From Schizophyllum amplum (taxonomy: Eukaryota > Basidiomycota > Agaricomycetes > Agaricales > Schizophyllaceae), in the NCBI GenBank assembly GCA_007026445.1, contig VDMD01000050.1, forward strand, positions 62,001-126,000: a stretch of DNA of 64,000 nucleotides, in the 5' to 3' direction. Below, in pieces: positions 14,189-41,187 of the stretch (positions are counted from its first letter, which is position 1; each line of letters opens with the position of its first letter). The notes below the pieces were generated by a model. It did no database searches. It was not told the DNA's origin and saw only the letters and a list, made by a program, of their open reading frames with translations. The position numbers were made by a program, and so were the translations under genes.

Positions 14189-14198
14189 CGGCCGGCGG
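14189..14198 (+). promoter_or_regulatory. CGGCCGGCGG promoter word, upstream of ABM-like copy 1
   Basis: An exact 10-base match 86 bases upstream of the start at 14103. It belongs to the set of ten sites found only in intergenic DNA of this cluster. Confidence 0.75.
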
Positions 14199-14512
14199 AT
14201 ACGTTATAGTCACGATGAGAAGGCGCGTCGGACTGATATCCTGAGCTCGGTAGCCCAGAACTGAGAAGCATAGTATCGGCGCCGCGGCCTTTGGCAGTGT
14301 CGTTGATGCGGGTCCCGTGGATGTTCATGCGAGATGAGAATGCGACATTGCACAATCACAAGCAGAGGGAAGATATTCTGGATTTTAGTATGGGAAGTGG
14401 GTTGGACACCGTGAGTGACTCTGAGTCTGAGAACAAGCCGTCGATTGCACGTATTTGCTTGTGTGCTTCGCCGCTCGCGCGCCGCTCGACGGCAAGTCGG
14501 ACCGGCCGCTAC

Positions 14513-14522
14513 CGGCCGGCGG
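14513..14522 (+). promoter_or_regulatory. CGGCCGGCGG promoter word, distal
   Basis: An exact match about 410 bases upstream of 14103, with a near-match (ACCGGCCGCT) directly before it at 14501-14510. Either it is a distal second site for ABM-like copy 1 or it marks a gene that no longer exists. Confidence 0.65.
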
Positions 14523-14889
14523 CCAGCTCAGGGGCTCGTCACACTCGACTCATGCCTTCTCGAAGCTTGTGGTCTCCCAATGGTGTCCTAGGTACCCAAC
14601 ACTTCGCAGACATGGCACGATATCGCCAATTTGACCTCAGCGTTTTTCTGGGTCCTTCCTCGAACATAGCTCGCACATACAGGGTCCAGTTTGAAGAGCT
14701 CCACTGACTGCCACCTTTTATTGCCTGAATACCCAATGATATGAGAGACAAGCGAACAAAATACCAACGACATAACACCTATCCCCTACTCGAGCGAGCA
14801 CATCTGATGAAGTATCACATCAAAGTCCCATTGTCCCTTGCGCATCGTCGACGCGATACTGAATGCATATAGCTCATGCACTGTCCCCC

Positions 14890-15466
14890 TTAAGCGAGGT
14901 TGATGGGAGTCGACGTGCCGCCCGACATGACGACGGGCGGGGTATAGTCGTCGTAGTTGTACGTGATGTAGGAGATGAGCTGAAAGACAGCATCAGCATC
15001 AAGATATTGGGCACACTCGCCGCGTATTGACTCACCAGCCAGTTGGTAATGTCAGAGCCCAGGGACGCGGTGACGTCGGGCATCTGAAGTGCTGTATAAG
15101 CCTATGCGTGAGCGTATAAACGTGTATAGGAGCTTACCGTCAGGTCCTGCTGAAGGACGTCCTGGTCCGCAGGGAAGTCGTTGCGAGCCAGCACGACGTA
15201 AGCCGAGCGGTCGCCGTTGGGCATCGTTCCCTGCAGCAGGAAGTCCACCGTCTTCGGTGTGTAGCGTGCCGCAGTCGAGTTGTACGTGACCGAGAACGTC
15301 TACAGGAATAGTCAGCTTTGCAACGATGCTCAGCGAGAGACAGACGTACCTGGCCAGCGCTGACCGTGTTGCTGCCGTCGATAGAGACCGCGCCGTAGCG
15401 AGCGGCCTCCTGAGCGAGGGCGCAGGTGGCGGCAGCGAGGACAGAGGTCAAGGCGAAGAAACGCAT
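14890..15466 (-). CDS. Small secreted protein
   Basis: Four exons give about 138 residues. Exon 1 (15350-15466) starts MRFFALTSVLAAATCALAQ, a clear signal peptide, followed by EAARYGAVSIDGSNTVSAGQ. Exon 2 starts TFSVTYNSTAARYTPKTVDF and ends in QQDLT. Exon 3 is short (MPDVTASLGSDITNWL). Exon 4 ends STPINLA with the stop at 14890. All junctions are GT-AG. The mature part is Thr/Ser/Asp-rich with no cysteines and a possible N-glycosylation site (NST). It resembles the many small secreted proteins of agaricomycetes; no function is claimed. It lacks the promoter word, so it is probably a bystander in the cluster. Confidence 0.8.
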
Positions 15467-16615
15467 GTTTAAGTGTGGAGGATGAAGATGGGATGTGAGG
15501 TGAGTGGATGAAGATGGACCGTCAGCAGGAGTCCTTTTATACTCGTCCTCATGGATCAGAATAGGTTGGTGCGAACCTGGTGCGCATGATCTTTGACCAA
15601 CGCCGAGGACGTGTAGGTAACGGGAGCCGTCGACATGCTCCCGAATCAGGACGGGTAGGAGCGGCGACGGGCTCGAAAAGCCGCGTAGACCTTCACAAAT
15701 ACCATGCGACGCGGGATGATTTGCAGAGATTCAGGCTCGTTATATCGCTATTACCGAGCCGTGCACCCTTGATCAAGCATGAGTAGCCGACCATCCCCTC
15801 AGAGGTAGAAGATGCATTGACAAAGTGGCTGATATTCGGAGGGAGCACTGCTGAATCCTGATTACGACGGTCCAAAATGATGACCTATACTTACATATCC
15901 AGGAGTTCAAACGTTCACCGACGGCATCAGTGATCAGCGCTGCATTGGCCGACGACGATCAACGACGATCACCTCGACGACAACGTCGCGGAAAGCATGA
16001 CCTCGGAATCTGGATGTTTCTGAATATGGTAAATAATAGATCATGATATGCGGCAAATATGCGGGCGCACCTCGTCGAATTACTGAATTGTGTACGAGGC
16101 ACTCTTTTGTGTTCGAGCCACAACAAGCTGAGCAGCCTTGGTCAGAACGTTGGCAAGTCTGTCGAGGGAGAAGATAGGAGAAGAGCGGGACCTTAGGTCC
16201 ACCGTTGTGACTCTGTGAGGACTATGGGAAGGGAAGACAGAAGGCAAGAGCACCGTCATGCGTCATGCGACGAAGCGGGGAGTGCTAGCCATCACGTAGC
16301 TAGCTAGACTATTCCTGCACCCTGCACTGTGCGGCCCACTGCCAGTCACCTGCGGATGATCGTACGTCGCCGGCAGTGCACTAGGACTCAGACGTTGAGA
16401 AGCAACCCCGACTTGACCGGCAGCCAAGCATCAGCTGGGGCCGAAGCAGCCCCCGAGAGGGCTGCGTACACGAGAGCTGGGCGAGAGTACCGGTCGATAA
16501 GCGGGCAGTCGAAGACCGTGGTCCGTGACGGAGCCTTGACACGCGATTCGGGAATTGCCGGTAGGCTTTCGGCGGACCAGTCTACTGATCTTACTCCTTC
16601 CATCACGCTGCGTTT
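15467..16615. other. Intergenic, nothing recognised
   Basis: Shared upstream region of the secreted protein (-) and the F-box gene (+). A GACGATCAACGACGATCACC short direct repeat lies near 15953-15975. No convincing coding sequence and no cluster promoter word. Confidence 0.6.
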
Positions 16616-18046: not shown

Positions 18047-18138
18047 TAGGTGTCTCTGTGTATCATAACTACAGGCCGCATCCAGGTCGACATCGCGTAT
18101 ACACAAGATAAGGGTTCACTGTTGCTGCAACACTATAT

Positions 18139-19390
18139 TCAGTCAACGCGCCAGCCCCCGTCGATCGTGATCTAAGTAAACGCGAAGTCAGCCGCCGTTC
18201 GTGTGTGCTCATACATCGCAATGCTCACCGTCTGGCCTAACGATGTAGAAGGATGCAACAGACGATACTCGTCAGCAACGTTCTCTCTCGCTGACTTTCG
18301 GGCACGTACCGGTCACATAGCTGGACTCGACGCTGGCGAGGTATGACACCAGTGCGGCGATGTCCCCGGGCAGACCAACGCGCCGCATCGGTAGTGTTGC
18401 AGCTATCTGCAGCAGACTTAGATGGTGCTTACTGGAAGCGCAAGCCCGTCATACCGCAGGAAGGTCAATCTGTGTAGACACCTCTTCTGATCGCGCTAAG
18501 GTACAGTCATAATGGGCTCGAGGGGAGGTCAGGGAGGAACTCACTGAGAGGCGTGTCGATGGTGCCTTCCCCGCCACAGATTAGGACATATTGTAAAGCA
18601 CGCAAGAGAAGCATACCTGGTGCGTACGCGTTTGCCGTGATACCGTGCGGCCCAAGCTCCAGCGCTACAGGCGGGTCGGTGAGTCTGCGACGCTCGGCAC
18701 ACCTAACAACGTACCCGCAGTCTGAACAACGCCGCGCATAGCGAATTTACTGGCGTTGTATCCTGTGAAGCCAGGATACGCTGACGGTCTACCATGAGGA
18801 TGAAGTATGAGGCGGAAAGTACAATTTATTACCCATTTTACCCGCTAGCGACGACGCGGCAACTAACCGCCCCTCGCCATGCCCGAGCTCGATGATCTTC
18901 TTGGCGGCGTACTTGAAGCACAGGAAGACGCTGAGGCCATTGATTGCCATGGTGCGATTGAAGCCGGAGGCCGTCTCTGAAGTAGGCGTCAGACAGGAAC
19001 AGCCACAATGCTAGAGAATCTTGACCTTCGAGGAACGAACAGGCGGGTCCGATACCAGCGTTGGCCACCATCTACGCAAGCGTCAGAAATACACGACATC
19101 AAGCCGAGTACAAGAAAACTCGCCACATTGAACCCTCCGAGGGTGTTCGCCGTGCCCTCCACCATGGACTTGACGTCCTCCTCCTTGGATACATCACCTG
19201 TGAAGACAGCCGCCTTACCGCCGGCCTCTTCGACTGCCTTCGCTACCTCGTCGAGCGCCTCTGTTTTAGCCGGCAGATCACTAATTGCAACATCGAGCCC
19301 GTCGCGGGCAAGACGGATAGCGATGGCTTTTCCCATTCCTTGCGCAGCACCAGTGACCAGCGCGACACGACGAAGAGTAAAGGTAGACAT
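18139..19390 (-). CDS. Short-chain dehydrogenase/reductase (classical, FabG-like)
   Basis: An NAD(P)H-dependent oxidoreductase. It starts MSTFTLRRVALVTGAAQGMG at 19390 (cofactor motif TGxxxGxG). The NAG motif is MVANAGI near 19065. The catalytic Ser lies in AASSLAGKMG near 18840-18870 and YxxxK is in GYNASKFAMRG near 18755. Then follow ELGPHGITANAYAP, GTIDTPL and LPMRRVGLPGDIAALVSYLA. It ends ITIDGGWRVD at 18139. At least seven introns, about 260 residues, all catalytic residues present. The motif layout matches diacetyl/acetoin-reductase and 3-oxoacyl-reductase-like members; the substrate cannot be told. It is divergently transcribed from ABM-like copy 2 through a 310-base promoter carrying two sites of the shared word, so it is probably a tailoring enzyme of the cluster. 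Confidence 0.88.
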
Positions 19391-19450
19391 GTCGGATAGT
19401 AGCACGTCAGGTCATTGCCGACATTTTGTGATATAAGTCGAATGAGTGTG

Positions 19451-19458
19451 GCCGGCCG
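19451..19458 (-). promoter_or_regulatory. Core promoter word CGGCCGGC, SDR side
   Basis: An 8-base core match on the minus strand (plus strand GCCGGCCG), 60 bases upstream of the SDR start. Flanks (A-CGGCCGGC-CA) agree with those of the site at 33956. Confidence 0.6.
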
Positions 19459-19543: not shown

Positions 19544-19553
19544 CGGCCGGCGG
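19544..19553 (+). promoter_or_regulatory. CGGCCGGCGG promoter word between SDR and ABM-like copy 2
   Basis: An exact match 148 bases upstream of the ABM-like start (19701) and 154 bases upstream of the SDR start, so it could serve both genes. Confidence 0.75.
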
Positions 19554-19700: not shown

Positions 19701-20449
19701 ATGACCACTCTGCAGATACACACGTTCTCTCCGTTCGGAGAGGATACCGCCCAAGCGGTCAGGAAAGCGGCGGAGAGCGCAACTGGCCTGCAGAAGTACG
19801 TGGATATGCATTTTTTCTTGATCAAGCTGAGCCGTACGACAGAGTATACATAGGCCGCCAGTTGGAGAATCCGGAGCACGGATACTACGTCCTACGCAAG
19901 TGTCAGCTCCTTGTATTCGTCAGTTATTGCAGACGTTTACCATCGTTTGCGAATAGAGTGGGCGTCAGGCAGACAACCGTCGATCGACCGCACGCCCGAC
20001 CTTGTGGGGGCCGGGGTCCTGAAGCGCATCTCCTCCCCCACTACCGTGAAGATAACCAGCGAGAGCGAGCACCAAATACAGGCCGTCCTGGAAGCTCCTG
20101 TGCAAGAGTTTGCCATCGCCACGCTTAGGGCACCAGAGAATCGAGAGCAATGGGAGCATATCCTGGGATTGACCACGGAGGGCGTACGCGTCACGGAGGG
20201 GGCTATCGGGTCGATTCAAGGGCTTGCCGCGGATGATGATGGACGCTATGTGCTCATCCTGGGCTGGGAGTCGCACGAGGTAAGTGCACGATTTGTGTGC
20301 GCTTGCGGCGACGAGGTTGCTAAAGCTGAGACTAGGCGCACATGAGGGCCTTGGGGTCGGAATATGCAAAGGACGTGATGAAGCAGACGTTGGAATTGGT
20401 AGACTTTCAAGTCAAACACGCCGAGAAAGTGTCGTACGACGCTGTATAA
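19701..20449 (+). CDS. Small ABM-like (dimeric alpha/beta-barrel) protein, copy 2
   Basis: This is the second of three paralogues. It starts MTTLQIHTFSPFGEDTAQAV, followed after an intron by GRQLENPEHGYYVL near 19857, then IEWASGRQPSIDR near 19945, the strand APVQEFAIATLR near 20095, GRYVLILGWESHE ending near 20280, and after an intron AHMRALGSEYAKDVM to the stop at 20449. Length is about 215 residues. Segment order, intron positions around the ENP motif and after GWES(H/V)E, and overall size are the same as in copies 1 and 3, but sequence identity is low, so the copies diverged long ago. The enzymatic fold (ABM/Dabb-like) is inferred from strand pattern and context only. It is divergent from the SDR with a shared promoter. 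Confidence 0.7.
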
Positions 20450-21132
20450 TGAGGTGCTTTAGCTCAGGAGCCTCCGAGGTTGCTGTTGGCTTCCCGGGTG
20501 TCGAACGCGATCATGCGAATGCAGACCGGGTTGTTTTAGGTTCAAAGGTATTGCTATCTGTCGCGTGAGACGTTCACGTAGATAGGCCTCCAAAATTTGC
20601 AGAAGTTCAGCGAGGACATGAGGAATATTGACGACAGTCAAGCTTATGTGCATGCCATATGGTGGGGTGTCGGCTTATTTGGTCGTGTTATGCTCGGAGG
20701 GGCCCGGCGATGACGTAGGTACATATCGACGGCCCGTGCCATCCGAGCTCGACTTGAACTTGAACCACATCCTGCTCTTCACGTATGTCCCGGTCTCATC
20801 AGGTTGCTCATCGCAATATGTGGGAAAGCGAATGAGACAAAGGAGCTATGCCTACCCGCGTCCTCTGTTTGTACGCTCGCCACCGAATCTCAAATCCCCA
20901 CAAGCGCCACCTTACGCCCATGGCCACATTATGGTCATGAAAGGGGATATAATCGCTAGCTCTATATTTTCCCTTAGATATCAGCTACAACCCTCGGTCC
21001 GCCTTATTGCCTACTTTGGCGTCACTTCTGCGGCAAAGCGGCCGTATCTGTACTCGCTTCTGCCCTCACCGTCACCAGACTTGTTTGTTCTCCAGTCTCC
21101 GAGCTCGAGTATTCGGTCTTCAACCTCGTACT
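20450..21132. other. Intergenic, nothing recognised
   Basis: Upstream region of the secreted hydrolase. It holds a fairly long plus-strand open frame (20628-21269), but its composition and lack of motifs, and its overlap with the signal-peptide exon of the next gene in another frame, argue against it being a gene. Confidence 0.6.
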
Positions 21133-23217: not shown

Positions 23218-24102
23218 AAGGAAGGATAGCTAAGCGGCCTGTCCGTTGTGCAAGGCCTTTGGAACATGAGATGACCATGACTGGCGCATCCTCTTGTATT
23301 TCGATTCTCTGTGCTGGGATAATCGTGTCTCGCCTCGCAAAGACTCACAAAGAAGCGGGTCCCCTGATGTTACGATTGGAAAGGTGACTATGGTCAAATG
23401 TGCAGCAACACGGTGGTTATTTTGATGAGTTTGGACTTGGAGGTCCAAGCGGATGTCAATGAGGGCCGATCGGACCGAACATACAGTTTTTCTTGTCTCC
23501 CGATTCCCACGTACAACGTCTCCGTATGATGCGACTGGTGTTTTGCTTGCCTACCGTCAACGAATGCAAGATTGGGATTGAAGATAAACACCTGAACTCC
23601 GTGGCCTGTCTGGCTATGACAGGCAACGCGTTTGCGCATCGGCGTGACTCGCTGTTTGTTCGAATGTTCACTCAACGATCACTGCTCAAGCGCTCATCGA
23701 CATCCATGGGCTCGCGTCTCTATTCCATAGCATACTCTTTGGTAATGCTTGCTCATATTCAACTCTATGCTCGGCCTGCTGGCGAGGGCGAGAGAGCGGC
23801 CGGCGGCGACACTGACATGACTCTGGCAGTCGGGCTGTTTGACATACGGTGATAGTGGGCTAGTACGCCTAACTCGCGAGGATCGTTGACAGTGGTGATC
23901 TCCGCTTGACATGCACGCTCAGACTGGACACGGGCGCCTCGGAGTAACGGTCTACGAGTCATCGACGTGCCGCCTTCCGTCCCGAACAGTGAACCGAGCG
24001 CGAAGCCACAATGGGCCGCTGTGGATACTTTCTTGCTTTTCCCCGTCTCTTGCCTCCCCCCACCACTGTTTTCTCTTCGTCGCCGTCGTCGCCGCTATCA
24101 CG
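23218..24102. other. Intergenic, upstream region of the ABC transporter
   Basis: About 880 bases with no supportable gene. It contains one exact promoter word at 23797-23806. Confidence 0.6.
23797..23806 (+). promoter_or_regulatory. CGGCCGGCGG promoter word, upstream of the ABC transporter
   Basis: An exact match 297 bases upstream of the ABC start at 24103, flanked GAGAG and CGACA. Confidence 0.75.
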
Positions 24103-27100
24103 ATGGCAACGGAGTCGCATCGTCCCTCGCAATCCAGCGGTCCTAGCACAGTTGTAGATGAAGTGCCACCCGACAGCGCCCCGGTCAAATCAAAAGCTTC
24201 CGAAGACGCATTCGATTCCGATACACCCGATTCCGTCTCATTCTTCTCTTTGTTTAGGTGAGTGCAGTACCTCTACATGTCCCACAAACTTGCTCATTCG
24301 TCACAGATTCTCTACGACTACGGACCGCATTTTGAATGTCACGGGCGCCATAGCTGCAGTTGCCGCAGGCGCGGGCCAAGTTCGTCATCTGTCCCCATAA
24401 TATTATCATGCTAACTAGTGCGCGCTTTCTCTATAGCCGCTCATGACTCTTCTCTTCTCTAGACTCGCGCAGGACTTCTTGGTGTTTCAAACGATCCTCG
24501 GGCAAGCTGATGCAGGGGACGCGGCTGCGAGCGAACGTCTTCCTCAAGTGACGAGGCAGTTCTATCACTCGTCGAGCTTAAACGCGTCGTACATTGTGTA
24601 TCTCGGTGCGTTGCCGTCTTGAGATATCCGATCGAGGTCACTAATGGACGTCAGGGATCGGCATCTTTGTGGTGACCTACTTCTACATGCTCAGCTGGTC
24701 TTACACGGCGGAGGTCAATGCGAAGCGCCTGCGGGAGGAATATCTCAAGGCCACTCTTCGACAAGATATAGCCTACTTCGACAACGTCGGCGCCGGAGAA
24801 ATAGCAACTCGTATACAGACCGACACTCGTAAGTCGAGACCGTTTCAATGAATGTTTTTCACTCACATCCGACAGATATGGTGCAGCGCGGCATATCAGA
24901 GAAGGTTGCGCTCGTTTGCCAATACATGGGCGCGTTCATCGTCGGTTTCATCCTCGCCTTCATCCGGTCGTGGCGCCTCGCTCTCGCACTTTCATCCATC
25001 ATACCCTGCCTCGGCCTCTTCGGCGGGATACTGAACTACTTCACGACTAAATTTGTGCAGTAAGTAGGCTGATGTCGTTTCCGCGAGCTTACGCTTACGT
25101 ATACATCTTCTGCAGACGAACTACGAAGCACACGGCAGACGCCGGCACTGTTGCGGAAGAAGTCATATCGACGGTCCGCACTGCCAAGGCCTTCGGAACG
25201 CAGGGAACATTGGCAGGCATGTACGGACGTCACATCGAGCTGGCGTATAACGAGGACCTTAAGAACTCCATCGTGCAAGGCATGAGCTCCTCGGCATTTT
25301 TCTTCATTATCTATAGCTCTTACGGTCTTGGTACGTCCAAGTCTATGCAGGAAGGCTTATCACTAATTCTCACGTACCGTCTGCAGCCTTCAGCTTTGGG
25401 ACGACGCTGATTCTACACGGTCGCGGTATGTCTTGAGCGCCGCATATATACCGTTTAAATGACGACGAATCGATTGCAGCGGATCCCGGAGTTGTCATCA
25501 ACGTTTTTTTCGCTATTTTCATCGGCGCCTTCTCGATCGCGCTGCTTGCGCCCGAGATGCAAGGTGAGCTCGTCAGTCATACCACCATTGGGACGGCGCC
25601 TGATCAATGTTGCTCTAGCTATCAGTCAAGCTCGAGGCGCGGCGGCCAAGCTTTATGCTACCATAGACCGTGTCCCGAGCATAGACGCATATAACGAGAC
25701 CGGACTCAAGCCGGATATCGTCCAAGGAGATATCACGCTGACGGACATCAAGTTCGCATACCCGGTGAGTCTTGTATGTCTCACGCTCTGCGTATCTTGT
25801 GTTCTTATCGTTTTCAGGCTCGTCCAGATGTTCAAGTCGTCAAGGGCGTTAACTTGCACTTCCCGGCCGGAAAGACAACCGCTCTAGTCGGCGCATCCGG
25901 ATCTGGCAAATCGACGGCCATCTCCCTCGTCGAGAGGTTCTACGATCCGTTGGAAGGCGTTGTGCAGCTCGACGGCGTTAACCTGAAGGACTTGAACCTG
26001 AAGTGGCTGCGCTCTCAAATTGGACTCGTCAGTCAGGAGCCCACACTCTTCGCGACGACCATCAGGGTGCGTGTAGCCATGGGTGTCGGTCCGCCACGCA
26101 TATATCTGACCTACTCATCGCAGCAAAACGTTGCTCACGGGCTCATCAACACACGGTGGGAACACGCCGCGCCGGAGAAGCAATTCGAGCTGATCAAGGA
26201 GGCGTGCGTCACCGCGAACGCGGATGAGTTCATTGCGAAGCTTCCGGAAGGTTACGATACCATGGTCGGCGAGCGCGCCATGTTGCTCTCAGGCGGACAA
26301 AAGCAGCGGATCGCGATCGCGCGCGCCATCGTGGCAGACCCTCGAATCCTGCTCCTCGACGAAGCGACATCTGCGCTAGACACCCAGTCCGAAGGCATCG
26401 TCCAGGACGCGCTCGACAAGGCGGCCACGGGGCGCACGACCATTACAATCGCACACCGGCTTTCGACGATCAAGGACGCGGACGTGATCTTCGTCATGGG
26501 CGAGGGGCTAGTCCTGGAACAGGGCACGCACACCGAGCTGCTGCAGAACGCCGACGGTCCCTACGCGCGGCTCGTCGAGGCGCAGAATCTGCGGCAGGCC
26601 GAGGAGCGCGAGGTGAACGACGAAGAGGATGACGACGTGGAGGTGACGGAGAGCAGCGCATTCGAGAAAAGGCTGAGCAGGCGGTACAGTTACTCGCTGC
26701 GCCGCAACAGTATGACGCGATCCCTGGCGAGCGAGATATTGGAGGACCGGGCGCGAATTGAGCATGACGACGTCGAGGAGCACAGCGCGTTCTCGTTGTT
26801 CAAGCGGATGGCGCATATAAACCGCGACGAGACCATGTTCTATGTGTTTGGCGTGTTCGCGGCTATGTGCTCGGGGGCGGTGTATCCGGCGTTTGGGATT
26901 GTGTTTTGTGCGTGTCTCATTGCGAGTCATCTCTGTTTTTCTGATCTGTTTTGTAGCACAAGCGCTGACGGGTCTGGCCGCCGAAGATCCGGGCGAGAAG
27001 CGCAGGGAGGGCGACCGGAACGCGTTGTGGTTCTTCATCATTGCGCTCGCCTCGACTGCTGCCGCCGGCGTTCAGAATTACGTCTTCACCTCCACCGCTG

Positions 27101-30459: not shown

Positions 30460-31682
30460 ATGTCCATCCAACTCCCGATTGAAGAGCTTACGCGCTTATG
30501 TGTGCATGCTCAGCTTTCGTCCTCGTCTGACGAAAGCATCACACTCTCAGTCAGACCGTCGCCCCAGGGAATCCCACATGCTCAGCCTCTTCCGCCACCA
30601 ACTGGGTACCAAATCAACTTTGAAATCAAGTCCACAAGCCAGGGAGCCACGCTCGTAGTGTCTGTAACACTGCCGCAACAGGAGATCAGCTCAGAATTTT
30701 CGGGCAGCATAAATAGCCACGGTACGCGCGCACGTCCTGTGATCTTTGTAACTGTCTCTTGTGCTCACCGGTCACCCTCAGGCGAGCGTTCCTCGGTCGA
30801 CGATCCGTCATACAGTGTGTTTTGTGTACATTGTGCGTGGCGGTATTGATCAGGACATACAGAATTGTTCATCGAGAAGGAGTCCACTCCTTCTGGCCTG
30901 CCAAACGCGACCTACACGTCTGGCCCGTCGGACGAGGACCTTCAATCATGCTCTCCCGTTGATCCGGGCTTCTTCCCGCCACTGTATAACGATTTGAATT
31001 TCTTCCCTCTTGCCAATGCCACGGTGGACTCGATGCAGGGGCTCACTGGTCAGTCATGCATCACTAATACAAGCTAATACACTGCTGGATAACTCATCTG
31101 TATGCAGATCCCATGATCTTATCCATGCTAGCCGGCTTATCCCCTTTGGAGCTAGCGAGCGGTACATGGAATCAACCTCCGAAGGACTCGACCGCTTCCC
31201 CTACCCTCCAAACGCCCGTATCACCCGTATCGCCCGCCATTCACTCGCCTGTGCTTCAGCCTCCGCCTTCCTCGTCCTCCTCGTCCCCTTCATTGTCTAC
31301 ATCGCCATCCGGGAGTCCAGCGCTTGCGCCCAATGTGACGCCCCGCAAGCGCAAGAGCAAGGATGAGCAGAAGCCGCGGACGTTGGAGTGCACCATGGGG
31401 TGCGAGGAGAGCTTCTCCAGGCAGCATGATCGCTTTCGGCACGAAGTCCTGAAGCACGGGCGGCCGTGCGACTGGGTATGCGACACGTGCCACAAGTTCT
31501 TTGGGTCTCAAAAGAACCTGGACAAGCATGCGTGCAACAAGAATTCGCGTTGGACGGCCCCTACTTGTGAGTGTGAAGCGTTTGATTCGAGGAGCCTGCC
31601 GCTACAGCTTGAACTCATCGACAGAGGAACACACATTGGAAATTCAGGGATCTACGCCTCATTCGATACGAGAGCGATCTAG
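30460..31682 (+). CDS. C2H2 zinc-finger transcription factor (copy 2)
   Basis: Paralogue of the gene at 11938. Exon 1 (30460-30721) begins MSIQLPIEELTRLCVHAQL and shares LSVRPSPQGIPH and GYQINFE with copy 1. A middle exon carries FIEKESTPSGLPNATY and ends in DSMQGLT before a donor at about 31050. The last large exon (from about 31108) has a Pro/Ser-rich linker, a basic PRKRKSKDE patch, and two fingers: LECTMGCEESF (C-x3-C-x12-H-x4-H) and CDTCHKFFGSQKNLDKHAC, with the same unusual second finger as copy 1. Exon boundaries match copy 1. The true 3' end is uncertain; a donor follows RWTAPT at about 31568 and read-through stops at 31682. It is probably a nuclear regulator. It lies directly 3' to the converging first P450. 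Confidence 0.75.
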
Positions 31683-31711
31683 ATTGCGTATTTACGCATA
31701 CCCATAGACTA

Positions 31712-33850
31712 TCACTGATCAGGTCCTATGCTATGCAAATCCATCTTCACGTCAGACCTACTGAAATTTCCCCTGCGGAACACCACGTCCATATTCTTCG
31801 GCAGACTCAGCGCGAACGGCGAGAACCCGTTCTTCAGCCCATCCATATGCGGCGAATCTGCCGGCAATTCCCACTCCCACTCACGCAGCAGCATTGAGAT
31901 GAGCGTGCGCATCTCGTAGAGCGCAAAATTCCGCGCAGGGCATTGACGTGGGCCGAGCGCGAAGGGCCTGGCGGTCATGTCAGTGACGGCAGACAGAGCC
32001 AAATGGAATGAGGCGACGCACATCCACAAGCCAGCATCTACGTGAGCGATCTCCTTGTCGTCGCGGTTCATGAAGCGCTCCGGCTTGAACGATGAGGGGC
32101 TGCAAATGTGGAGATGATCAGGGGGCGATGGGAGTGCTAAAGGAATAACAGACCTTGGCCAATAGCGCGGGTTATAATGGATCGCGCAGATGTTCAGAAT
32201 GACGGAGGTGTTGGCGGGGAGTACGTATCGTTTGCCAAGCGCGCTCACGAGCTCCGCCGGTCGTGCGCTTGCGCGGGGGACCATGTAGACCTGCGCAGCA
32301 TGTATAAGCGGATTATCCGAATCTTTGGGGGCACCACTACTCACAATGGGCGTGTTGATGCGCAGCGCTTCGCGGATGCAGGCCTGGATGAAAGGAAGAT
32401 CGTGCAGGTTATCTAGGTTCGGCTCGTCGGTCCCCATGGCGGCTAGGACCTCGGCGCGTGCGCGGACTTGCATCTCTGGGTGCTTGGCGAAAAAGTAGAC
32501 GAGGCTGGACATGGCGCCGGCGGTTGTGTCCTGAGAGGGGGCGTGGCTCAGCGAGGTAGCGCGTACAGTTACGACCTTTGAACTCACGTGTCCGGCAATG
32601 AAGAAGACGACCATATTGTCGCGAAACTCGACGTCACTCATTTCGGGCTAGAGCTTGCAGTCAGGGAGGTGTCGAAGGAGGAAGAAAATGAGGACATACC
32701 TCCTCAAGCATGTAGGTCAGCATGTCGTTGCCCTTGTTTTCTTTTTTCTGATCGAGGATGTTGGTAAACTTGGCGATGAGCGCGTCAATTTTGCGGATGA
32801 TGTCGCGACGAGGGATGAGCCTCTCAAGTCCAGGGAAGACGATATAGCTAAAATTCCATGAGGAAATGATAGTCATAACGGGCACGGACAAACAGGGGGT
32901 TGGCTATGCTGTCCATGACATGGCTGTACTCTTTGACGAAGGGTCTGTGGGACGGTCAGATTGAAGGTGCGGAATGAAGCCCGGAAACCGCACGTGTTGG
33001 TGTCCTCGATACTGTTGAAGTCCCAGCCAAAAGTTGTTGATCCGACGGCGTCCAGCGTGAACCGCTGGTCGGGAAAGGTCAGCTATACGGGAATCGAGAG
33101 ACGAAACCCATGGACACTGACCATGGCCAAGTCATCCCATTGCATTTTTCCGCCGTCTCCCATGACACGGAAAAGGCGATTAGCGAGATTGACGAAATCT
33201 TCGATGGGAAGATTGCTGCGAGACATGGGTTAGCGGATGGCGGGATGGACCAGCGCGATGCTTACCGTTGAAGCGCAGATTTGACCACGCGAGAATGGCG
33301 CTGCCAATTGATGCCGTTGGATAGGATAACATTGGTCTGATCGACGTAAATTAGTGATGTGAGTCTTGTTCAAAGGCTTTGGACGTCTACTTTACCCACA
33401 AGCCGCCATAGCAGCAGGTCATCTTCGAGCTTGGTGAGTATATAATCCGTGTTAACATGTACGAGTGCGTACCAGGAGGCTCCTCTTTTGGCCAAGTCAC
33501 GATGTCTGCGGAGATGTCCTTCGCAATCTGAACTTCGCTTGTATAATCTGCAGATATTGACGAGCTGAGACACCCACCTTATCATCGAGTACATGGACTA
33601 TCCAGCGGCCAAGCGCATAGACCAGCACCACGCCCTCGCCGCGCTCGGCGAAGGGGAGAAGCAAACGCTTGATACGCACATCTTCGACTTCTCCTGTGAA
33701 GTAGCTCCAGAGCAGTGGCAGGACAGGGACGCGGGGTAGATGAGCGAGCTCGGGGGGCGGCGTGAAGAGTCTTCGGCACGCGATGACGAGGAGACCGACT
33801 GCAGTGAGTAGCACCCAGTGCTCTTGCATCGCTGTGACGATTGTCGACAT
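31712..33850 (-). CDS. Cytochrome P450 (cluster P450-1)
   Basis: A haem-thiolate monooxygenase anchored in the ER by an N-terminal segment (HWVLLTAVGLLVIACRRLF). Family landmarks in order: C-helix NWQRHSR (WxxxR) near 33300, I-helix FFIAGH|DTTAGAMSS with the AGxDTT motif split by an intron near 32590-32535, K-helix ExxR in EALRIN near 32360, PERF in SFKPERFMNR near 32080, and the Cys-ligand loop FALGPRQCPARNFALYEMR near 31940. In that loop the position two after the Cys is Ala instead of the usual Gly. It ends SIGPDQ at 31712. About ten exons, around 520 residues, no frameshift seen. It is divergent from P450-2, with sites of the shared promoter word on both sides of the 500-base gap. The substrate is unknown. 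Confidence 0.9.
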
Positions 33851-33955
33851 GGCAAAAGTTGGACGAAGAGGCGTCTAGCTGGCACTCGCGTTATAAATGA
33901 GGTATGTGCAATGTTGACAGGTAGGCTCGTTACAGCGGATGAAGTGCGCACTTTG

Positions 33956-33963
33956 GCCGGCCG
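33956..33963 (-). promoter_or_regulatory. Core promoter word CGGCCGGC, P450-1 side
   Basis: A core match on the minus strand 106 bases upstream of the P450-1 start at 33850. Flanks match those of the SDR site at 19451. Confidence 0.6.
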
Positions 33964-34202: not shown

Positions 34203-34212
34203 CGGCCGGCGG
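34203..34212 (+). promoter_or_regulatory. CGGCCGGCGG promoter word, P450-2 side
   Basis: An exact match 135 bases upstream of the P450-2 start at 34347. About 95 bases further on, 34307-34322 holds a perfect 6-base-arm palindrome, GGCCGG-TCTT-CCGGCC, made of the same half-site. Confidence 0.75.
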
Positions 34213-34346: not shown

Positions 34347-36642
34347 ATGCTGGATACGCCGCTTGCATCTGCGCTCGTCATTTTTTCTCTGACGGTCCTA
34401 TGGATCGCGCTCAGACACAAGAAACCTTATGAGCACCTTCCTGGTCCAGACAGCACGTCGATAATGGGATACCTTCCTCAGCTGCATGACGAAAAATCAC
34501 TGCATAGTTTCCATTACAGCATGTGTGCTCGGTACGGTCATGTAGCGCGTCTGCGCGGAGGGTTCTTCGGGGTGCGTCACTATCTGACTCTGCTGTCATT
34601 CTTCTAATTGTGAACAACCTAGCTCCAGAAGGACGCGCTATACATCACAGACCCCCTTGCTCTACACTCGATCTTGGTGCGCGATCAGCGCGTCTTTGAA
34701 GAATCGACGGAGTTCAGAGGGTGTGTCGCGTCGCTCTCCTGCGCTCTATAAGTCACTCATCATGCACGTAGGCTCTTTGGTATCATTCACCACGGCGAAC
34801 ATACCGCTACGGCATATGGCACGTCTCTGCAGCTTCCTTTCGTATGCTGATATTGACATTTCTGCAGGCGCCGCTCATAAACGTCTGCGTCGGGTGCTCA
34901 ATCCAATATTCACAGCCGCTTTTGTCTCCAAGCTCTCGCCTATCTTTTACAAAATTGGTTTTCAACTCCGGGACAGGCTTGCTGGCATGCTTCAAAACGG
35001 GCCAGCTGAAGCCACCAATATCGACATGCTTGATCTCCTGACGCGCACCGCTCTCGAGCTCATCTCTCAGGGCGGCCTGGGACATTCATTCAATAGCTTC
35101 GAAGAGGACAGCAAGGAGTTTGACACGTTCCACGAGGCGCTGACGACTGTTCTGTGAGTCATCTCCCCTTCGAGTGAGCCAGCCACTCATCGAAGTAGGC
35201 CAATGGGCGGTCGCTTGTTCCTAGTTTTCCCCTTTCTCAATGGATGGCGCAAGATGAAGCCGGCTTGGCTTCGGGGATTTCTCTCTGCTACTGTCAGGTA
35301 CATTCCCTGGCCGTCTGCGCGCAGAGTGAGTTGGCTTGTAATGCCAGAGCCGTTGCCACATCTGATGCGCCTCCAAGTTTAAGTGGGCTGTTGATACGAT
35401 GCACCCCGTCTGCAAGCGACTGTTCATGGACAAGAAGAGGCTCATTGCGCAAGGGAGCATCAGCGAGCTCGAGAAGACAGTTTCAGGCGGGAAGGACTTG
35501 TCGTCCCTACTCAGTAGGCTTCCATCATAACCGTCTTCCCAATTCCACTTATCCGTCGTACTCAGTCGCACGCAACTTCGAAATAGACGATGCGGACAGG
35601 ATGGACGACGAGATGGTCATTGCCACGATGAGGTCTTACTCTTCTTTCCGTTCCGTATGACTACTGAGCCTCTCTGCAGCTCCATCGTCTTGGGCGGACA
35701 AGAGACCACTGCCGGAGCCTTATCCCGTCTTCTCTGTCTGATGGCAGAAAGACCTGACCTTCAGCGGCGGCTTCGCGAAGAGCTGAATACCGCACAGTCT
35801 GTGAGTCAACTACTTCGTGGTCGGAGACGTTCGTTGACCAAAGTAGGGCAAGGAGGACGACGAGGAGCTCGACTATTACGAGCTCGACAAACTGCCCCTC
35901 CTCGACGGCATCTGCAGGGAGGCACTGCGGGTATTCGCGCCCGTGACCTTCGTCTGGAGGGAGTGCGTTATGTTCACCAACTCCTGTCACTTTTTACTGA
36001 CATTTCCATAGGACCTACGAGGACAGCGTCGTGCCTCTGCAGTTTCCCATCCGGGACCCCGCGACTGGCGCGGAGACGCGGGAGCTCCTCATCACCAAGG
36101 GAACACCCGTCTACATCGGCATGGGCGCGGCGAACCGGTCTACGACAATCTGGGGCGCGGACGCGGCGGAGCTGAAGCCGGAGCGCTGGATGGAGAAGAG
36201 TATCGACGAGAGTACCCCGAATGGGGTGAAGATGCCTGGTGAGCACACTTTGGGCGATGCTGGGACGCGGCTGATGCTTGTATCATCGTAAGGGATATAC
36301 TCGAACATCATGACCTTCCTCGGTGGTGGCCGTGCGTGCCCGTGAGTCTTAACTTGGATTTTGCATCGTTGTGCATGACTGAAATGTCTACCTTGCAGTG
36401 GCATGAAGTTTGCGATCTTGGAAATCAGTGAGTACATGCTCCCGAGCGCCGTTCTTGCTATATTGAAACTCACTTGCTATCCAGAGCTCGTCCTGTCGAT
36501 CCTGATCCCCGCCTTCGAGTTCATCTCGTGTCCAGAGGAGATCGATTGGCGCCTAGGTATCACTGTTGGTCCGTACGTCAAGGGCAAGGAGGAGGCTGGG
36601 CCCAGTGTGCCTCTCATGGTGAAGAAAATCGGCGGACAGTAG
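34347..36642 (+). CDS. Cytochrome P450 (cluster P450-2)
   Basis: A second monooxygenase, of a different subfamily from P450-1 and P450-3. It starts MLDTPLASALVIFSLTVLWI (membrane anchor), then the proline hinge YEHLPGPDSTS. Further landmarks: GAAHKRLRRVLNPIFTAAF near 34875 (C-helix region typical of agaricomycete P450s), I-helix VLGGQETTAGALSRLL near 35690, K-helix ICREALRVFAPVTF near 35912, PERW near 36180, haem loop FLGGGRACPGMKFAILEI near 36318-36420, and a C-terminal SVPLMVKKIGGQ to the stop at 36642. About 14 exons, all key motifs intact. The haem Cys loop is split by an intron after GRACP. Its divergent promoter is shared with P450-1. Confidence 0.9.
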
Positions 36643-37218
36643 GTAGACATGAAGCTACAATTGATTTTTTGCTTGCGCACAGCGCCTATCGATCGTATAT
36701 GCATACTGAACTTCGCGACGTGTAGTGTTATTCCAGTGCAGTGTTAAAGCGACGACCTCATCCGCCGCGTGTATACTAGTCCACTGTCAACCTTCGCAAG
36801 AGTTGAGTGGGTGTGGCGACGTTGATGTTGTGTTTAGACAAGTGTCGGTTCGAGCTTTGTGAGAAGAAATGAAGATTAGCATGGGACTTCGTCGTCCGCG
36901 ATGAGATACATACTGGTGCAGAGTCGCCATCTCCACTCGGATGAGTTTGCTGTACGGGAGACAAAAGCTTGGAATGTAGAACAGAAAAGCGGTCAGCTGT
37001 ATAAGCCTACAAACGACAGAGTGATGCCGGCGAACAAAACCAGGTCACAATATGTGGCGCACGGCGCCTGGGCTCTATGTTCGTAGTATAGTACCTTCGA
37101 TAGGCGAACTGTGTATCGTGTATAGAAAGGAAGAAGGGATAGGTGGGATATCGATGTGTTATCTTTAGTCACTTCATTGTCACTACTTCAACTGCCCTGT
37201 TCTTCGACGACATCTACT

Positions 37219-39419
37219 TAATCCTCCGTACGCGCTCCCTCAATGAGATCCACCGCACTGGCGCTCCGGGGTACAATCGTGCACTCGAAATCATCCGCAC
37301 GCCTGCAATAAAGCAAAGTGAGTCAGTAAAACACGAACCAAGGAGGAAGGACCACGATTGAGAAGGACAAGGAGCGACAACTCACAGCACGAGAATTCCG
37401 CCGTACGTCCCCGGAACATCGACCTCCTTCCCGTCTTTCGTTGTCTTCTTTATGTCGAATGTGGCGAGGATGGACGCCAGGGCCTGCCAGAGGATTGCCT
37501 CAGCGAGGTAGCGGCCGACACAGACGCTGTCGATCGAGTGCATATCAGCCAGCGAACATGAGATAGCAGGCGTGCATGATATGCCACGCTCACCGCCTGC
37601 CGAACCCGAATGCAATCGAGTGCCAGTTGCGAAGGTCGCCCTCGAGGAAGCGTTCGGGGCGGAAGACATTCGGGTCCCCGAATGTATGCTCGTCGTAGCA
37701 CATCGCCCTACAAGGGAGCATCAGTCGGAAGAGCAATCTGTCCTATTATTCGTACCAGATGTTTGGTAGGATCGTCACGCCTGGATTACGCAAGTCAGAT
37801 CAGTAGGAGCACATGAAAAGAACGACCACCAACAGACCTTTGGGGATGAGGTAGCCGTTATATATCATGTCCTGCACCGGGCTGTGCGGCAGACCTACGC
37901 CGGTCATCAGCTTGAAGATACAGCTGAAGACGCTGAGCCTGCCCACGTACCAATCGGCAGCGGCGGATGCATGCGAAGGGTTTCCTTGATGACAGCATCG
38001 AGATATGGCAGCGACGGACGGTCGCCAAAGTTGGGCAGTCTCTCGGGGCCGACAACGGCGTCGATCTCGGCTTGCGCGCGTCGTTGTACTTCCGGATATC
38101 GCACAAGCTCAAGCATGAGCGCGCGCATGCCTGCGAGCGTCTTGGCATCGTCAGTGTCGGTGGGGCATTCGAAGATAGGGTTTGAGCGCCGTACCGTATC
38201 GCTGGCAGCTAGTAGCGACGTGTAAGTTGAATTATGCGGATGCACTTGTTGATATAAAGACCCACCGGCGAAGAACTGCGATGCAACGCCTTTGAAGCGC
38301 ACTTCGTCTTCCGTACTCGTAGCTCGGTCGAGGAGACTTCGCATCCAGGAAGGCGGTGCCGTTCCATTCGCCTGTACGATGCTTAAGCTGATAATGGCTC
38401 ATGGACAGCACGACTACTCACAATTTGCTGCTTCACGATATTGAACGGCAGATCTCGCATGACTTTGACGAACGCGTTGGAGCGAGCAGCCAGTCTGCTG
38501 AAGGTTGAAGAGGCAGCCGAAAGCCAGGACGGGAGGAACCTCACTGTGGCCCTCATCAGCCGACAAACCTCGAGTAGTCCAGAGTACGCACGTGGTGGGA
38601 ACAGGAACACAAGCTGAGATCCCGGTAGCGTAGCTTCCTCGAGGCAGTGGATTGCTCCCTCGGTAGCCTCCATCAGATCCTGGCCATTTTTCGACTCGGC
38701 GTCGAAGCCGTAGCAGATATTGATAGACATGGCGCTCACGCATCTGTGCTATGTTATGAGAGGGAGTACAAAGGCGAGGGGATGGGTATTGACTGGCGAA
38801 TATGTTCCATGAAATTATTGGGTTCGCGCAAAAACTGCACAAGCAGTTTGTTGATGCATGGCACGACAGCTGGGTAGTGCGAAGGGACGGCGCCTGGGTT
38901 GAATTCCTGGTGGAATGCGCGGCGCGCGAGACGCCACTCATCGCCATAGTGCAGATGGCCAATGTTCGTGCCCCAGCCAATTCTGAATGCGTGGATTCAG
39001 GTCAAATGAGAGCTGTATATGCGAATCAGGGGACTCACAAGCTGATCATCACATTTTGTGGCCGGTCGGAGGTCAGACCAGCGCTCTTGTCTAAGATCTC
39101 GTATGCGGCCTCGGCAGAGTTGATGACGAGCATCTCGCGAGTAAGCGCTTTGAGGTAGACAATGTCGCCTGTGTACAAGGTTAAACGGGGTTGACGGATG
39201 GTGTAGGTATTTCAAGAGCGCGTGTGACGTACCGTACGTTTGCCCCCATTCCATGTATTTCAGCCATGCGTTGTCCTGCGGCATCTGCAAGAGGTTCCCT
39301 AGCAGAGGCATGCGCGGGGGGCCTGGAGGAAGCGGTGTTGCCTGACGGTTTCTCGCGTACATGGCGAGCCCGCAGGCAAACAACACCGAGGCAGCCAGTA
39401 GCTGCGCGTCTGAGGTCAT
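37219..39419 (-). CDS. Cytochrome P450 (cluster P450-3)
   Basis: A third monooxygenase, resembling the agaricomycete P450s often labelled O-methylsterigmatocystin-oxidoreductase-like. It starts MTSDAQLLAASVLFACGLAM with the hinge LPPGPPRMPLLGNLLQMP. Further landmarks: GDEWRLARRAFHQEF near 38945 (WRxxRR), I-helix FFA|AASDT|T across two introns near 38275-38150, K-helix DAVIKETLRMHPPLP near 38000, WAMCYDEHTFGDPN and RPERFLEG near 37650-37710, and haem loop FGFGRR|VCVGRYLAEA (join at about 37594/37530). The last exon ends VDLIEGARTED at 37219. About 12 exons and 500 residues, no lesion found. A promoter word lies 161 bases upstream. Confidence 0.9.
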
Positions 39420-39579
39420 AGGCGGTGAGAAGAGTCAAGCGACGAGCAGGAGTGTGTAAGCTATAGAAGAAATAGAGGGATGCATGTATCGCTCGGAAGA
39501 GCTCGAACTGCGCTGGCGTACTTGGGGTCGGGCTGTCATGCATCGTGCATTCATGGACGGCGTTTAAACGGCTATACAG

Positions 39580-39589
39580 CGGCCGGCGG
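39580..39589 (+). promoter_or_regulatory. CGGCCGGCGG promoter word, P450-3 side
   Basis: An exact match 161 bases upstream of the P450-3 start at 39419. Confidence 0.75.
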
Positions 39590-39969
39590 ACTTGGTTGAA
39601 GTTCGTGGCGACTGCAACATCAGGCTACTCAGGCTAGTCTGTATATCTGACATACATCAGGAACGGAGAAGCAGCTGCAACGAGACACGGCGGGCAGGAA
39701 CAAGGTGCAAAGACTGCGATGAGAGCAGGAAGTGTGACACAACGGTGACAACAAACGTGATTCAGACATGTTCGGCAAAAGCCGTTCATTTTGCTTTACC
39801 GCCAAGTTGTTCTCCCACCCTCACCTCGTATACGTTCTACTATCCTCCAGGTCTCGCTTCCCACGCAGGTCCCACTCCACTATGCTCTAGCCGTGATCTA
39901 TGAAGCCAGCATGAAGCAGTTCGCTGTGATGATGATTTCAAGCCTGCAGCAATGCGCACCAGATGCGCA

Positions 39970-39979
39970 CGGCCGGCGG
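39970..39979 (+). promoter_or_regulatory. CGGCCGGCGG promoter word, ABM-like copy 3 side
   Basis: An exact match 155 bases upstream of the ABM-like copy 3 start at 40134, nearly the same spacing as at copy 2 (148 bases). Confidence 0.75.
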
Positions 39980-40133
39980 CGCTAGTTTAGCACCGTAACG
40001 GCGCCACGCGCTGAGCAATCTCGGCCGCTTGTCGTCTGCCAACCTGTCCGGGCAACGCATCGGCTGTGCTCGCATAAAGTAGGAAGGTCGCACGACTTCC
40101 GCAATCCTCAGTTGCATCATATCGTGAACTATT

Positions 40134-40928
40134 ATGCCGATCCTCGAACTTTTCGCGTCTGTCGGTTTCGATGAGGCGCAATCTCTGTCTGAAGTCAAGG
40201 ATGCAGCCGCATCTATAGCTGAAGGAGAAGCACTCGCACTGTATGTTCTTTCGCCGCCATCGTGGCAGAGGGTTTCCGATCTCCCGCGTCAGAGTATTTG
40301 CAGGACGTGAAATCGAGGATCCCAACTACGTTCACTGGGCGCTGGGTATGTACCCCAATCGAATGGTACAGTATGCTATGGCTCACTGTTGTCCGTCACC
40401 CACAGAATGGCCCTCGCTTCGCGCTCGCGACGTGTCGATGCAGGACGGCAGCTATCAAAGACTCATGAAGGCCGTCGGTTCGAGCATACGCCGAGGGCCC
40501 ATCGTGACTAGTCTCCTCGATGACCAGATCAAACCATTTTCAGGCATCCTGGACACACCGGTGCCAGAATTTGCGGTCACCAAGGTCAAGGGGCGGGCAG
40601 CGCGTGCGCAGGCCGCCCAAGCCATCGATGGCATGCTCGCCAACCCGCACGAGCGCACGACTCAGGGCGAGGTAGTGCTGCGTGGCATAGACGACGAGGA
40701 CTGCGTCATCTTCGTCGCGGGGTGGAAATCTGTGGAGGTGAGTTCGGTCCGGCGCTGAACAGATGCAATTGTCCTTCCATGCCCGTGGAACTCCAAAGCT
40801 GACTGTGCTTACCTTTGTAGGATCATATGTCGGAGCTGTCCAAGCCTTCGCAGAAGGCCGTGAATGATCTGGCGGAATCGTGCATGGAGGTTGTATACAT
40901 TGGTCATTGTTCAGGGAGGATACTCTGA
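40134..40928 (+). CDS. Small ABM-like (dimeric alpha/beta-barrel) protein, copy 3
   Basis: This is the third paralogue. It starts MPILELFASVGFDEAQSL at 40134. A second exon reads GREIEDPNYVHWAL (40307-40348). The third runs from EWPSLRARDVSMQDGSY at 40407 through DTPVPEFAVTKVKG near 40550 to FVAGWKSVE at 40738. The last exon (DHMSELSKPSQKAVNDL) ends at the stop 40926-40928. About 215 residues. The layout is the same as copies 1 and 2. In copy 3 the conserved ENP becomes EDP and GWES becomes GWKS. I infer a duplicated ferredoxin-like/ABM fold, as in small enzymes that tailor fungal metabolites. It is divergent from P450-3. Confidence 0.7.
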
Positions 40929-41177
40929 GTCTTGAGTTTTGAGGAGACGTCACGCGTCACAGCTCCAATGATTATGAAGGAAGTCAGAACGTTACAATGG
41001 CAAGTGTTGATGTGAATTCATTGGAAGATGGTCTTGAGTCTTGTCAAAGGAATTTTTTCTGTATGAGTAAGTATCTGAAGTCGAACCGAACAAATAAAGG
41101 GACATGCCGAAAAGGAGATAGCAAAGCCAAATATGCGCAAAGTGCATCTTGCCATTGTCCCCTTCATGCGCAAGTTG

Positions 41178-41187
41178 CCGCCGGCCG
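41178..41187 (-). promoter_or_regulatory. CGGCCGGCGG promoter word, upstream of the NRPS
   Basis: An exact match on the minus strand (plus strand CCGCCGGCCG), 79 bases upstream of the apparent NRPS start at 41266. Confidence 0.75.

What the first reader, a model, noticed from the sequence alone, without database searches (positions are those of the whole stretch)
14189..41187. A shared promoter word, CGGCCGGCGG, marks a hidden regulon
Seen directly: the exact 10-mer occurs at 14189, 14513, 19544, 23797, 34203, 39580, 39970 and (minus) 41178, and the 8-base core CGGCCGGC also at 19451 and 33956 (minus). All ten lie in intergenic DNA, 60-410 bases upstream of a start, before ABM-like copies 1-3, the SDR, the ABC exporter, P450-1, -2, -3 and the NRPS. 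The only other core match I found is in the GC-rich transposon at about 51860. Chance expectation for one 10-mer on both strands of 64 kb is about 0.1-0.3. CGG half-sites are classic targets of fungal Zn2Cys6 activators (established), yet the regulators inside the cluster are C2H2. The word may thus be read by an outside activator or by the unusual C2H2 pair (inference).
Basis: partly seen in the sequence, partly recalled or inferred. Interest (0 to 1): 0.88.

Follow-up and report, generated by a model that had tools for sequence, protein, structure and literature searches.

The report
Shared promoter word marks terpenoid regulon
A ten-letter DNA word sits in front of most genes of what looks like a mushroom metabolite gene cluster, and in front of a terpene-making gene 28 kb away, so it is most likely the docking site of a protein that controls the whole pathway.

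Summary
Confirmed: eight exact CGGCCGGCGG (shuffle mean 0.33), all intergenic. The two variant cores merge with them as YGGCCGGCSG: ten matches in the window, all in promoters. Of nine promoter regions in the span, six hold it; they serve nine of ten metabolic genes. Genome-wide the word is background: 243 in 49.65 Mb; outside this locus and its second copy no 30-kb stretch holds more than three. On that copy (contig C268, probably the other haplotype) all eight words and both cores are intact, although in two promoter regions only 10% and 19% of other 10-mers are. A ninth word, outside the window, is 241 bp upstream of a HAD-type terpene cyclase (AstC, E 7.6e-64). With an A-T-C NRPS, three P450s, an SDR and an exporter this resembles the astellolide pathway. 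Best reading: a cluster-specific regulator site of a sesquiterpenoid pathway. The reader protein is unproven; two in-cluster C2H2 proteins are nearest, and no Zn2Cys6 match lies on either contig. Co-expression and orthologous clusters were not testable. The kind is known; the member, its word and the terpene link appear new.

The parts
14189..14198 (+). word CGGCCGGCGG, 86 bp from the start codon of ABM1
   Evidence: intact on C268
14513..14522 (+). word, 410 bp from the start codon of ABM1
   Evidence: intact on C268
19449..19458 (+). variant TGGCCGGCCG in the divergent SDR|ABM2 promoter; on C268 it reads CGGCCGGCCG, a palindrome (8-base core intact)
19544..19553 (+). word in the divergent SDR|ABM2 promoter
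   Evidence: intact where 26 of 265 other 10-mers are
23797..23806 (+). word about 297 bp upstream of the ABC exporter
33954..33963 (+). variant TGGCCGGCCG in the divergent P450-1|P450-2 promoter
34203..34212 (+). word in the divergent P450-1|P450-2 promoter
39580..39589 (+). word in the divergent P450-3|ABM3 promoter
   Evidence: intact where 129 of 667 other 10-mers are
39970..39979 (+). word in the divergent P450-3|ABM3 promoter
41178..41187 (-). word 79 bp upstream of the likely NRPS start
13470..14103 (-). ABM-like gene 1 (start codon likely, exon structure uncertain, no Pfam match)
18139..19390 (-). short-chain dehydrogenase
   Evidence: Pfam adh_short_C2 3.4e-39 on the shorter model; longer start
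19701..20449 (+). ABM-like gene 2 (exon structure uncertain)
   Evidence: Pfam ABM E 0.027, below its cut-off, on a hand-joined query
24103..29240 (+). ABCB-type ABC exporter (first exons uncertain)
   Evidence: Pfam ABC_tran 2.5e-29 on frame 25695-27221; model
31508..33850 (-). cytochrome P450-1
   Evidence: Pfam p450 5.5e-57
34347..36646 (+). cytochrome P450-2
   Evidence: Pfam p450 3.9e-28 on the shorter model; start
37188..39419 (-). cytochrome P450-3
   Evidence: Pfam p450 2.5e-69
40134..40935 (+). ABM-like gene 3 (no Pfam match)
41266..45221 (+). single-module NRPS, adenylation - carrier - condensation
   Evidence: Pfam Condensation 1.5e-26 and AMP-binding 8.3e-15 on the spliced model; PP-binding 1.5e-8 on the open frame 43636-44025, which the spliced model does not carry
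12533..13078 (+). last exon of C2H2 regulator 1 (two fingers); no word anywhere in the window before 14189
   Evidence: Pfam zf-C2H2 1.3e-5
31068..31562 (+). last exon of C2H2 regulator 2 (two fingers), 65% identical to regulator 1 over query residues 56-165; nearest words 2.9 kb downstream and 7 kb upstream

Best explanation
The word YGGCCGGCSG, mostly CGGCCGGCGG, is the binding site of a pathway-specific transcription factor that co-regulates, most likely activates, a sesquiterpenoid cluster. It lies in the promoter regions of nine genes (ABM1-3, SDR, ABC exporter, three P450s, A-T-C NRPS) and of a HAD-type terpene cyclase 27.7 kb past the last cluster word. Proposed chemistry: the cyclase makes a drimane-type scaffold, the P450s and SDR oxidise it, the NRPS esterifies it, the ABC protein exports it. 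Shown here: positions, enrichment, exclusivity to this locus and its second copy, conservation on that copy, domain content.
For: Of nine promoter regions in the span, defined from gene models, six hold the word; no other 10-mer, apart from shifts of this one, is in more than two of the six or of the nine. One search gives P 1.9e-17 for six of six, but those six regions were chosen because they hold the word, so that figure is inflated. Ten of ten YGGCCGGCSG matches in the window are in these regions. Genome scan of 243 places: eight in 30 kb only here and on C268, next best three. On C268 8 of 8 words and 2 of 2 cores are intact; the product of local survival rates is 6.8e-5 for all ten, 5.7e-4 for the eight words. 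Flanks of the ten sites are no more alike than chance (mean identity 0.26), so this is not a copied promoter. Both orientations relative to the genes occur, which suits a DNA site rather than an RNA signal. The ninth word is 241 bp upstream of an AstC-like cyclase. AstA has A, T and C domains and the ast cluster pairs it with AstC, P450s and an SDR (PMC5024094, passages). C2H2 pair: close relatives only in this cluster and on C268; the next best are 34-50% identical over 36-97 residues. No Zn2Cys6 match on either contig.
Against: No expression, binding or product data. The conservation test uses two copies in one assembly; four of six promoter regions are too alike to say much (58-69% of 10-mers intact), and the ninth word's region is 98% identical between copies, so its conservation says little. 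Three promoter regions of the span lack the word: small secreted protein|F-box-like gene, the TAP-like hydrolase, and the stretch before C2H2 regulator 2; C2H2 regulator 1 has none either. A second HAD-type cyclase on the same contig (C256:143320-144318) and a copy on C216 lack it within 900 bp. A recalled recognition code gives finger 1 GCG, present in the word but not in TGGCCGGCCG, and finger 2 does not fit.
Confidence: 0.77

Rival explanations
1. The word is read by a regulator encoded outside the locus, for example a Zn2Cys6 activator that recognises its CGG triplets, and the C2H2 pair acts at other steps.
For: The word contains CGG triplets and a CGG-CCG pair; Zn2Cys6 proteins often bind such half-sites (recalled). 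The genome holds at least 33 PF00172 matches. The recalled recognition code of the C2H2 fingers fits poorly, and neither C2H2 gene has the word upstream.
Against: The word clusters only here and on C268, which suits a dedicated regulator; close relatives of the C2H2 pair are confined to this locus and its copy; no Zn2Cys6 match on C256 or C268, though the search reads no exon junctions.
Confidence: 0.36
2. Chance or composition: a GC-rich word recurring in CpG-rich intergenic DNA.
For: The word is all G+C, and elsewhere in the genome it behaves like other GC-rich words (31 of 71 sampled places intergenic, 34 exonic, 6 intronic).
Against: 8 against 0.33; no other 30-kb stretch but C268 holds more than three; one-mismatch neighbours are not enriched; no other 10-mer, shifts of this one apart, is in more than two of the six promoter regions.
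Confidence: 0.04
3. A relic: the promoters once shared a copied element or repeat, and the word is what remains.
For: Some cluster genes are duplicated (three ABM-like, two C2H2), so promoters could have been copied too.
Against: Outside the word, flanks of the ten sites average 26% identity, at most 37% (45 pairs), and the words occur in both orientations; on C268 the word outlasts its surroundings.
Confidence: 0.04
4. A DNA element that is not an activator site: a repressor, chromatin or core-promoter element used by this locus.
For: Nothing in the sequence tells activation from repression; four of the six promoter regions hold two sites.
Against: Genome-wide the word is not tied to promoters (71 of 243 places examined), which argues against a general core-promoter element.
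Confidence: 0.14

Closest known systems
Cluster-specific promoter motifs of Fusarium graminearum: a cluster with NRPS FGSG_11026 (motif forms such as CAGGGATCGGCC; that it is the malonichrome cluster is recalled) and the trichothecene cluster (TnAGGCCT, named as TRI6 motif); PMC4198257, passages read
   Same: One short word in the promoters of most structural genes of one metabolite cluster; the FGSG_11026 cluster also joins an NRPS, an ABC transporter and a putative C2H2 gene for which no motif is listed
   Different: Other words, ascomycete, other products; the trichothecene word is reported as a TRI6 binding motif (the paper notes a study with another motif), this word has no binding data
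Rua1, C2H2 activator of the ustilagic acid cluster of Ustilago maydis (PMC10098057, passages; 'C2H2' from a title seen in the reference list of PMC5706154; that its targets share a promoter element is recalled, the paper is not held)
   Same: Basidiomycete cluster whose genes are controlled by a C2H2 regulator encoded in it
   Different: One regulator instead of two paralogues; glycolipid pathway; its site was not compared here
Astellolide (ast) cluster of Aspergillus oryzae (PMC5024094, passages)
   Same: HAD-type terpene cyclase AstC, NRPS AstA with A, T and C domains, P450s, SDR, transporter; a Gfo/Idh gene is listed beside it
   Different: Four P450s and an MFS transporter there, three and an ABC exporter here; counterparts of AstG, AstI and AstK were not sought here; no ABM-like gene in the table passages seen; the terms 'promoter' and 'transcription factor' have no occurrence in that text
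Antrocin cluster (ancA-E) of Antrodia cinnamomea with two HAD-like terpene cyclases (PMC12001456, passages; the 'two' from a title in the reference list of PMC10126200)
   Same: HAD-type sesquiterpene cyclases in a mushroom cluster; here too two such genes lie on one contig
   Different: Sequences and gene order were not compared; whether antrocin genes share a promoter word is not told in the passages seen

Membership tests
cluster-specific transcription-factor binding site | over-represented in the promoters of one cluster against the genome | tested here: met
   6 of 9 promoter regions of the span, serving 9 of 10 metabolic genes; 8 in 27 kb against 0.13 expected from genome density
cluster-specific transcription-factor binding site | conserved under divergence | tested here: met
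   8 of 8 words and 2 of 2 cores intact on C268; one comparison, no other species
cluster-specific transcription-factor binding site | bound by a regulator; mutation changes expression | not testable with these tools
   no binding or expression data
cluster-specific transcription-factor binding site | present in orthologous clusters of related species | not testable with these tools
   no fungal genome collection held; protein search switched off
Zn2Cys6 activator site | a Zn2Cys6 regulator in or near the cluster | tested here: not met
   33 PF00172 matches in the genome, none on C256 or C268; a domain split by an intron could be missed
C2H2-regulated cluster (Rua1/TRI6 type) | C2H2 regulator genes inside the cluster | tested here: met
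   two paralogues, last exons at 12533-13078 and 31068-31562
C2H2-regulated cluster (Rua1/TRI6 type) | finger specificity agrees with the word | tested here: inconclusive
   by a recalled recognition code, applied by eye to the fingers, finger 1 reads GCG, absent from the variant TGGCCGGCCG; finger 2 does not fit
drimane-type sesquiterpene ester cluster (ast type) | HAD-type terpene cyclase | tested here: met
   AstC 22tz_A E 7.6e-64 over residues 9-343 of the 343 given; outside the window, joined to the cluster by the word
drimane-type sesquiterpene ester cluster (ast type) | single-module A-T-C NRPS | tested here: met
   A and C on the spliced model, carrier on an open frame between them; exon joins there are uncertain
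drimane-type sesquiterpene ester cluster (ast type) | separate HAD phosphatases (AstI/AstK) | not tested
   not searched for
drimane-type sesquiterpene ester cluster (ast type) | product is a drimane ester | not testable with these tools
   needs chemistry

The most novel reading that the evidence does not exclude
A pair of locus-specific paralogous C2H2 proteins, possibly as a heterodimer on the near-palindromic YGGCCGGCSG, controls a whole mushroom sesquiterpenoid-ester pathway, including a terpene cyclase left 28 kb outside the core cluster. The word would be a wiring mark by which scattered pathway genes can be found from sequence alone.
Probability: 0.35. Interest if true: 0.68.

Novelty: new member of a known kind. 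Interest (0 to 1): 0.56.

Why it matters
Pathway-specific promoter words are documented in ascomycetes; for mushrooms I know of few (recalled). This one defines a regulon sharply from sequence alone, joins a cluster without an evident scaffold enzyme to a HAD-type terpene cyclase outside it, and so predicts a product class. It gives a small set of decisive tests: two regulators, one word, ten genes.

Tried and rejected
Chance and GC-content explanations were rejected. A dispersed repeat or copied promoter was rejected on flank identity. A general promoter element was rejected on 71 of 243 genome places; these are the distinct ones among 90 fetched loci, taken in listing order, not a random sample, and none is from this locus or C268. 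A first crude coding test was too lax (69 of 71 'open') and is not used. A second shared motif was sought: TGCGCA occurs in 5 of 6 word-bearing regions, P 0.003 uncorrected, not claimed. A tandem array of CAAACTGGTAGC at 4225-4287 turned up in the word counts and is unrelated. The second cyclase promoters were searched for a degenerate word: best matches have two mismatches.

Mended on re-reading: the six promoter regions had been chosen because they hold the word, so its P value is inflated; one search repeats the count on nine regions taken from gene models.

Limits: homologous proteins could not be searched (database off), so relatives and orthologous clusters are untested. No fungal genome collection is held. 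The host is taken as a mushroom-type basidiomycete from gene structure alone (441 introns in 89 predicted genes). That C268 is the other haplotype is inferred from colinearity and 90-95% identity of the aligned stretches; an old duplicate would serve the argument equally. Of the 3,000 bases of L093 only 1,906 aligned. Gene models come from my own simple predictor and are approximate; ABM1, ABM2, the ABC first exons and the middle of the NRPS are weak. In print: the exact word is in 19 papers of the library, ten titles seen in the listing, none on a fungal metabolite cluster; the listings (6 of 7 papers; 1 of 1; 8 of 8; 15 of 52) showed no such motif for a mushroom cluster, by title and abstract start.
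Full report
What was claimed. A 10-mer, CGGCCGGCGG, recurs in the promoters of a fungal metabolite cluster and marks a hidden regulon.

The word is the most over-represented 10-mer of the window. One-mismatch neighbours are not enriched (13 against 8.5 with the exact ones counted in), nor is the bare GGCCGGC (19 against 13): the exact word matters. The two core-only sites, read on the plus strand, are both TGGCCGGCCG, so all ten fit YGGCCGGCSG. That pattern has ten matches in the window, expected 0.93, all ten in the promoters concerned; the 51859 core match does not fit it.

Where the sites lie. I trained a simple gene predictor on this genome and checked start codons. The sites fall in six intergenic regions: ABM1; SDR|ABM2; ABC; P450-1|P450-2; P450-3|ABM3; NRPS. 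These hold 13% of the bases between 14104 and 41265; other GC-rich 10-mers there are in them 11-13% of the time, the word 10 of 10. Three further promoter regions of the span lack it: small secreted protein (14890-15466)|F-box-like gene (open frame 16589-18046, Pfam just below cut-off), the TAP-like hydrolase (20646-23217), and the stretch before C2H2 regulator 2. So 6 of 9 regions hold the word, serving 9 of 10 metabolic genes. No other 10-mer, shifts of this one apart, is in more than two of the six or of the nine. The P of 1.9e-17 is for regions picked because they hold the word and is inflated. Flanks of the ten sites are no more alike than random DNA (mean identity 0.26). Both orientations relative to the genes occur.

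Genome-wide. The assembly has 49.65 Mb in 309 contigs and holds 243 words (the word read backwards gives 224). In 30-kb windows two places have eight, C256 (this locus) and C268; no other has more than three. Of 71 distinct places examined (of 243; the first in listing order), 34 are exonic, 6 intronic, 31 intergenic, much like other GC-rich words, and 10 of the 31 have a predicted start within 862 bp downstream. Elsewhere the word is background.

Conservation. C268 carries the same cluster in inverted order, 90-95% identical over the aligned parts of five stretches (15.5 kb fetched), probably the other haplotype. All eight 10-mers and both 8-base cores are intact. In the SDR|ABM2 promoter only 26 of 265 other 10-mers are intact (0 of 38 with two or more CpG), in P450-3|ABM3 129 of 667 (19 of 75); in the other four regions 58-69% are. 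The product of local survival rates is 6.8e-5 for ten sites. The T of TGGCCGGCCG at 19449 is C on C268, as Y allows. Caveats: one comparison, gapped alignments, sites treated as independent.

Beyond the window. A ninth word lies at C256:130871, matched at C268:4783. It is 241 bp upstream of a minus-strand gene starting at 130630, whose first 343 residues match AstC, a fungal HAD-type terpene cyclase, at E 7.6e-64 over residues 9-343. This gene was not used to define the word. A search of the genome gave five matches at four places: C256:129632-130630, C256:143320-144318, C216 and C268.

What the cluster may make. The NRPS is a single module. Adenylation and condensation are on the spliced model; the carrier domain is on an open frame between them that my spliced model leaves out, so the joins there are wrong. 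In the astellolide pathway AstA has adenylation, thiolation and condensation domains and esterifies an aryl acid to a drimane lactone, AstC cyclises farnesyl diphosphate, and P450s and an SDR take part (PMC5024094, passages). Three P450s, an SDR and an exporter here fit that scheme. Counterparts of AstG, AstI and AstK were not sought. Product class is inference.

Who reads the word. Two paralogous C2H2 genes lie in the cluster; close relatives are only here and on C268. Among 33 Zn2Cys6 matches in the genome none is on C256 or C268. Neither C2H2 gene has the word upstream. A recalled recognition code gives finger 1 the triplet GCG, in the main word but not in the variant; finger 2 does not fit. 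I hold the C2H2 pair at about 0.5 and an outside factor at about 0.4.

Compared with what is known. Cluster-specific promoter words are documented in Fusarium (PMC4198257, passages), with a close parallel in the cluster of FGSG_11026: NRPS, ABC transporter, and a putative C2H2 gene for which no motif is listed. Rua1 of Ustilago is a basidiomycete cluster regulator. The kind is therefore known. I found this word in print for no fungal metabolite cluster in the listings (ten of 19 titles seen, 15 of 52).

Verdict. A real, locus-specific, conserved cis-element that very likely marks a sesquiterpenoid regulon reaching outside the window; binding, reader protein and product are unproven.

Noticed in passing
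C256:143320-144318 (outside the window) and C216:3512-4510: A second HAD-type terpene cyclase, 86% identical to the first over the 333 residues compared (C216 copy 89%), about 14 kb further on, without the word within 900 bp upstream.
   Followed up: partly
C268:5086-6030: On C268 the cyclase matches in two overlapping frames (82% and 95%) although the DNA is 98% identical: a broken frame or an assembly error. Described only.
   Followed up: no
12666-42271 against C268: Divergence between the two copies is uneven: stretches of about 220 columns around the sites are 72% to 98% identical, ABM2 79% at protein level over residues 48-156, the last exon of C2H2 regulator 2 100%.
   Followed up: partly
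46122-50074: A transposase-like gene (47981-50074, minus; DDE_3 E 3.1e-6, just under its cut-off) with another predicted gene beside it lies between the NRPS and the distant cyclase; the distance from last cluster word to cyclase word differs by about 2.4 kb between C256 and C268 (positions).
   Followed up: no
54376-55934, 58675-60168 and C256:131911 onwards: Three similar stretches that look like Gfo/Idh/MocA oxidoreductases (family recalled; no scan run); a Gfo/Idh gene is also listed beside the ast cluster.
   Followed up: no
4225-4287: Tandem array with four copies of CAAACTGGTAGC at 17-base spacing.
   Followed up: no
promoters of the cluster: TGCGCA occurs eight times in 5 of 6 word-bearing promoter regions, P 0.003 uncorrected: a weak candidate for a partner site.
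   Followed up: no
13470-14103, 19701-20449, 40134-40935: Three small, apparently paralogous proteins with at best a sub-threshold match to ABM (E 0.027 for gene 2; none for 1 and 3) sit in the regulon; role unknown.
   Followed up: partly
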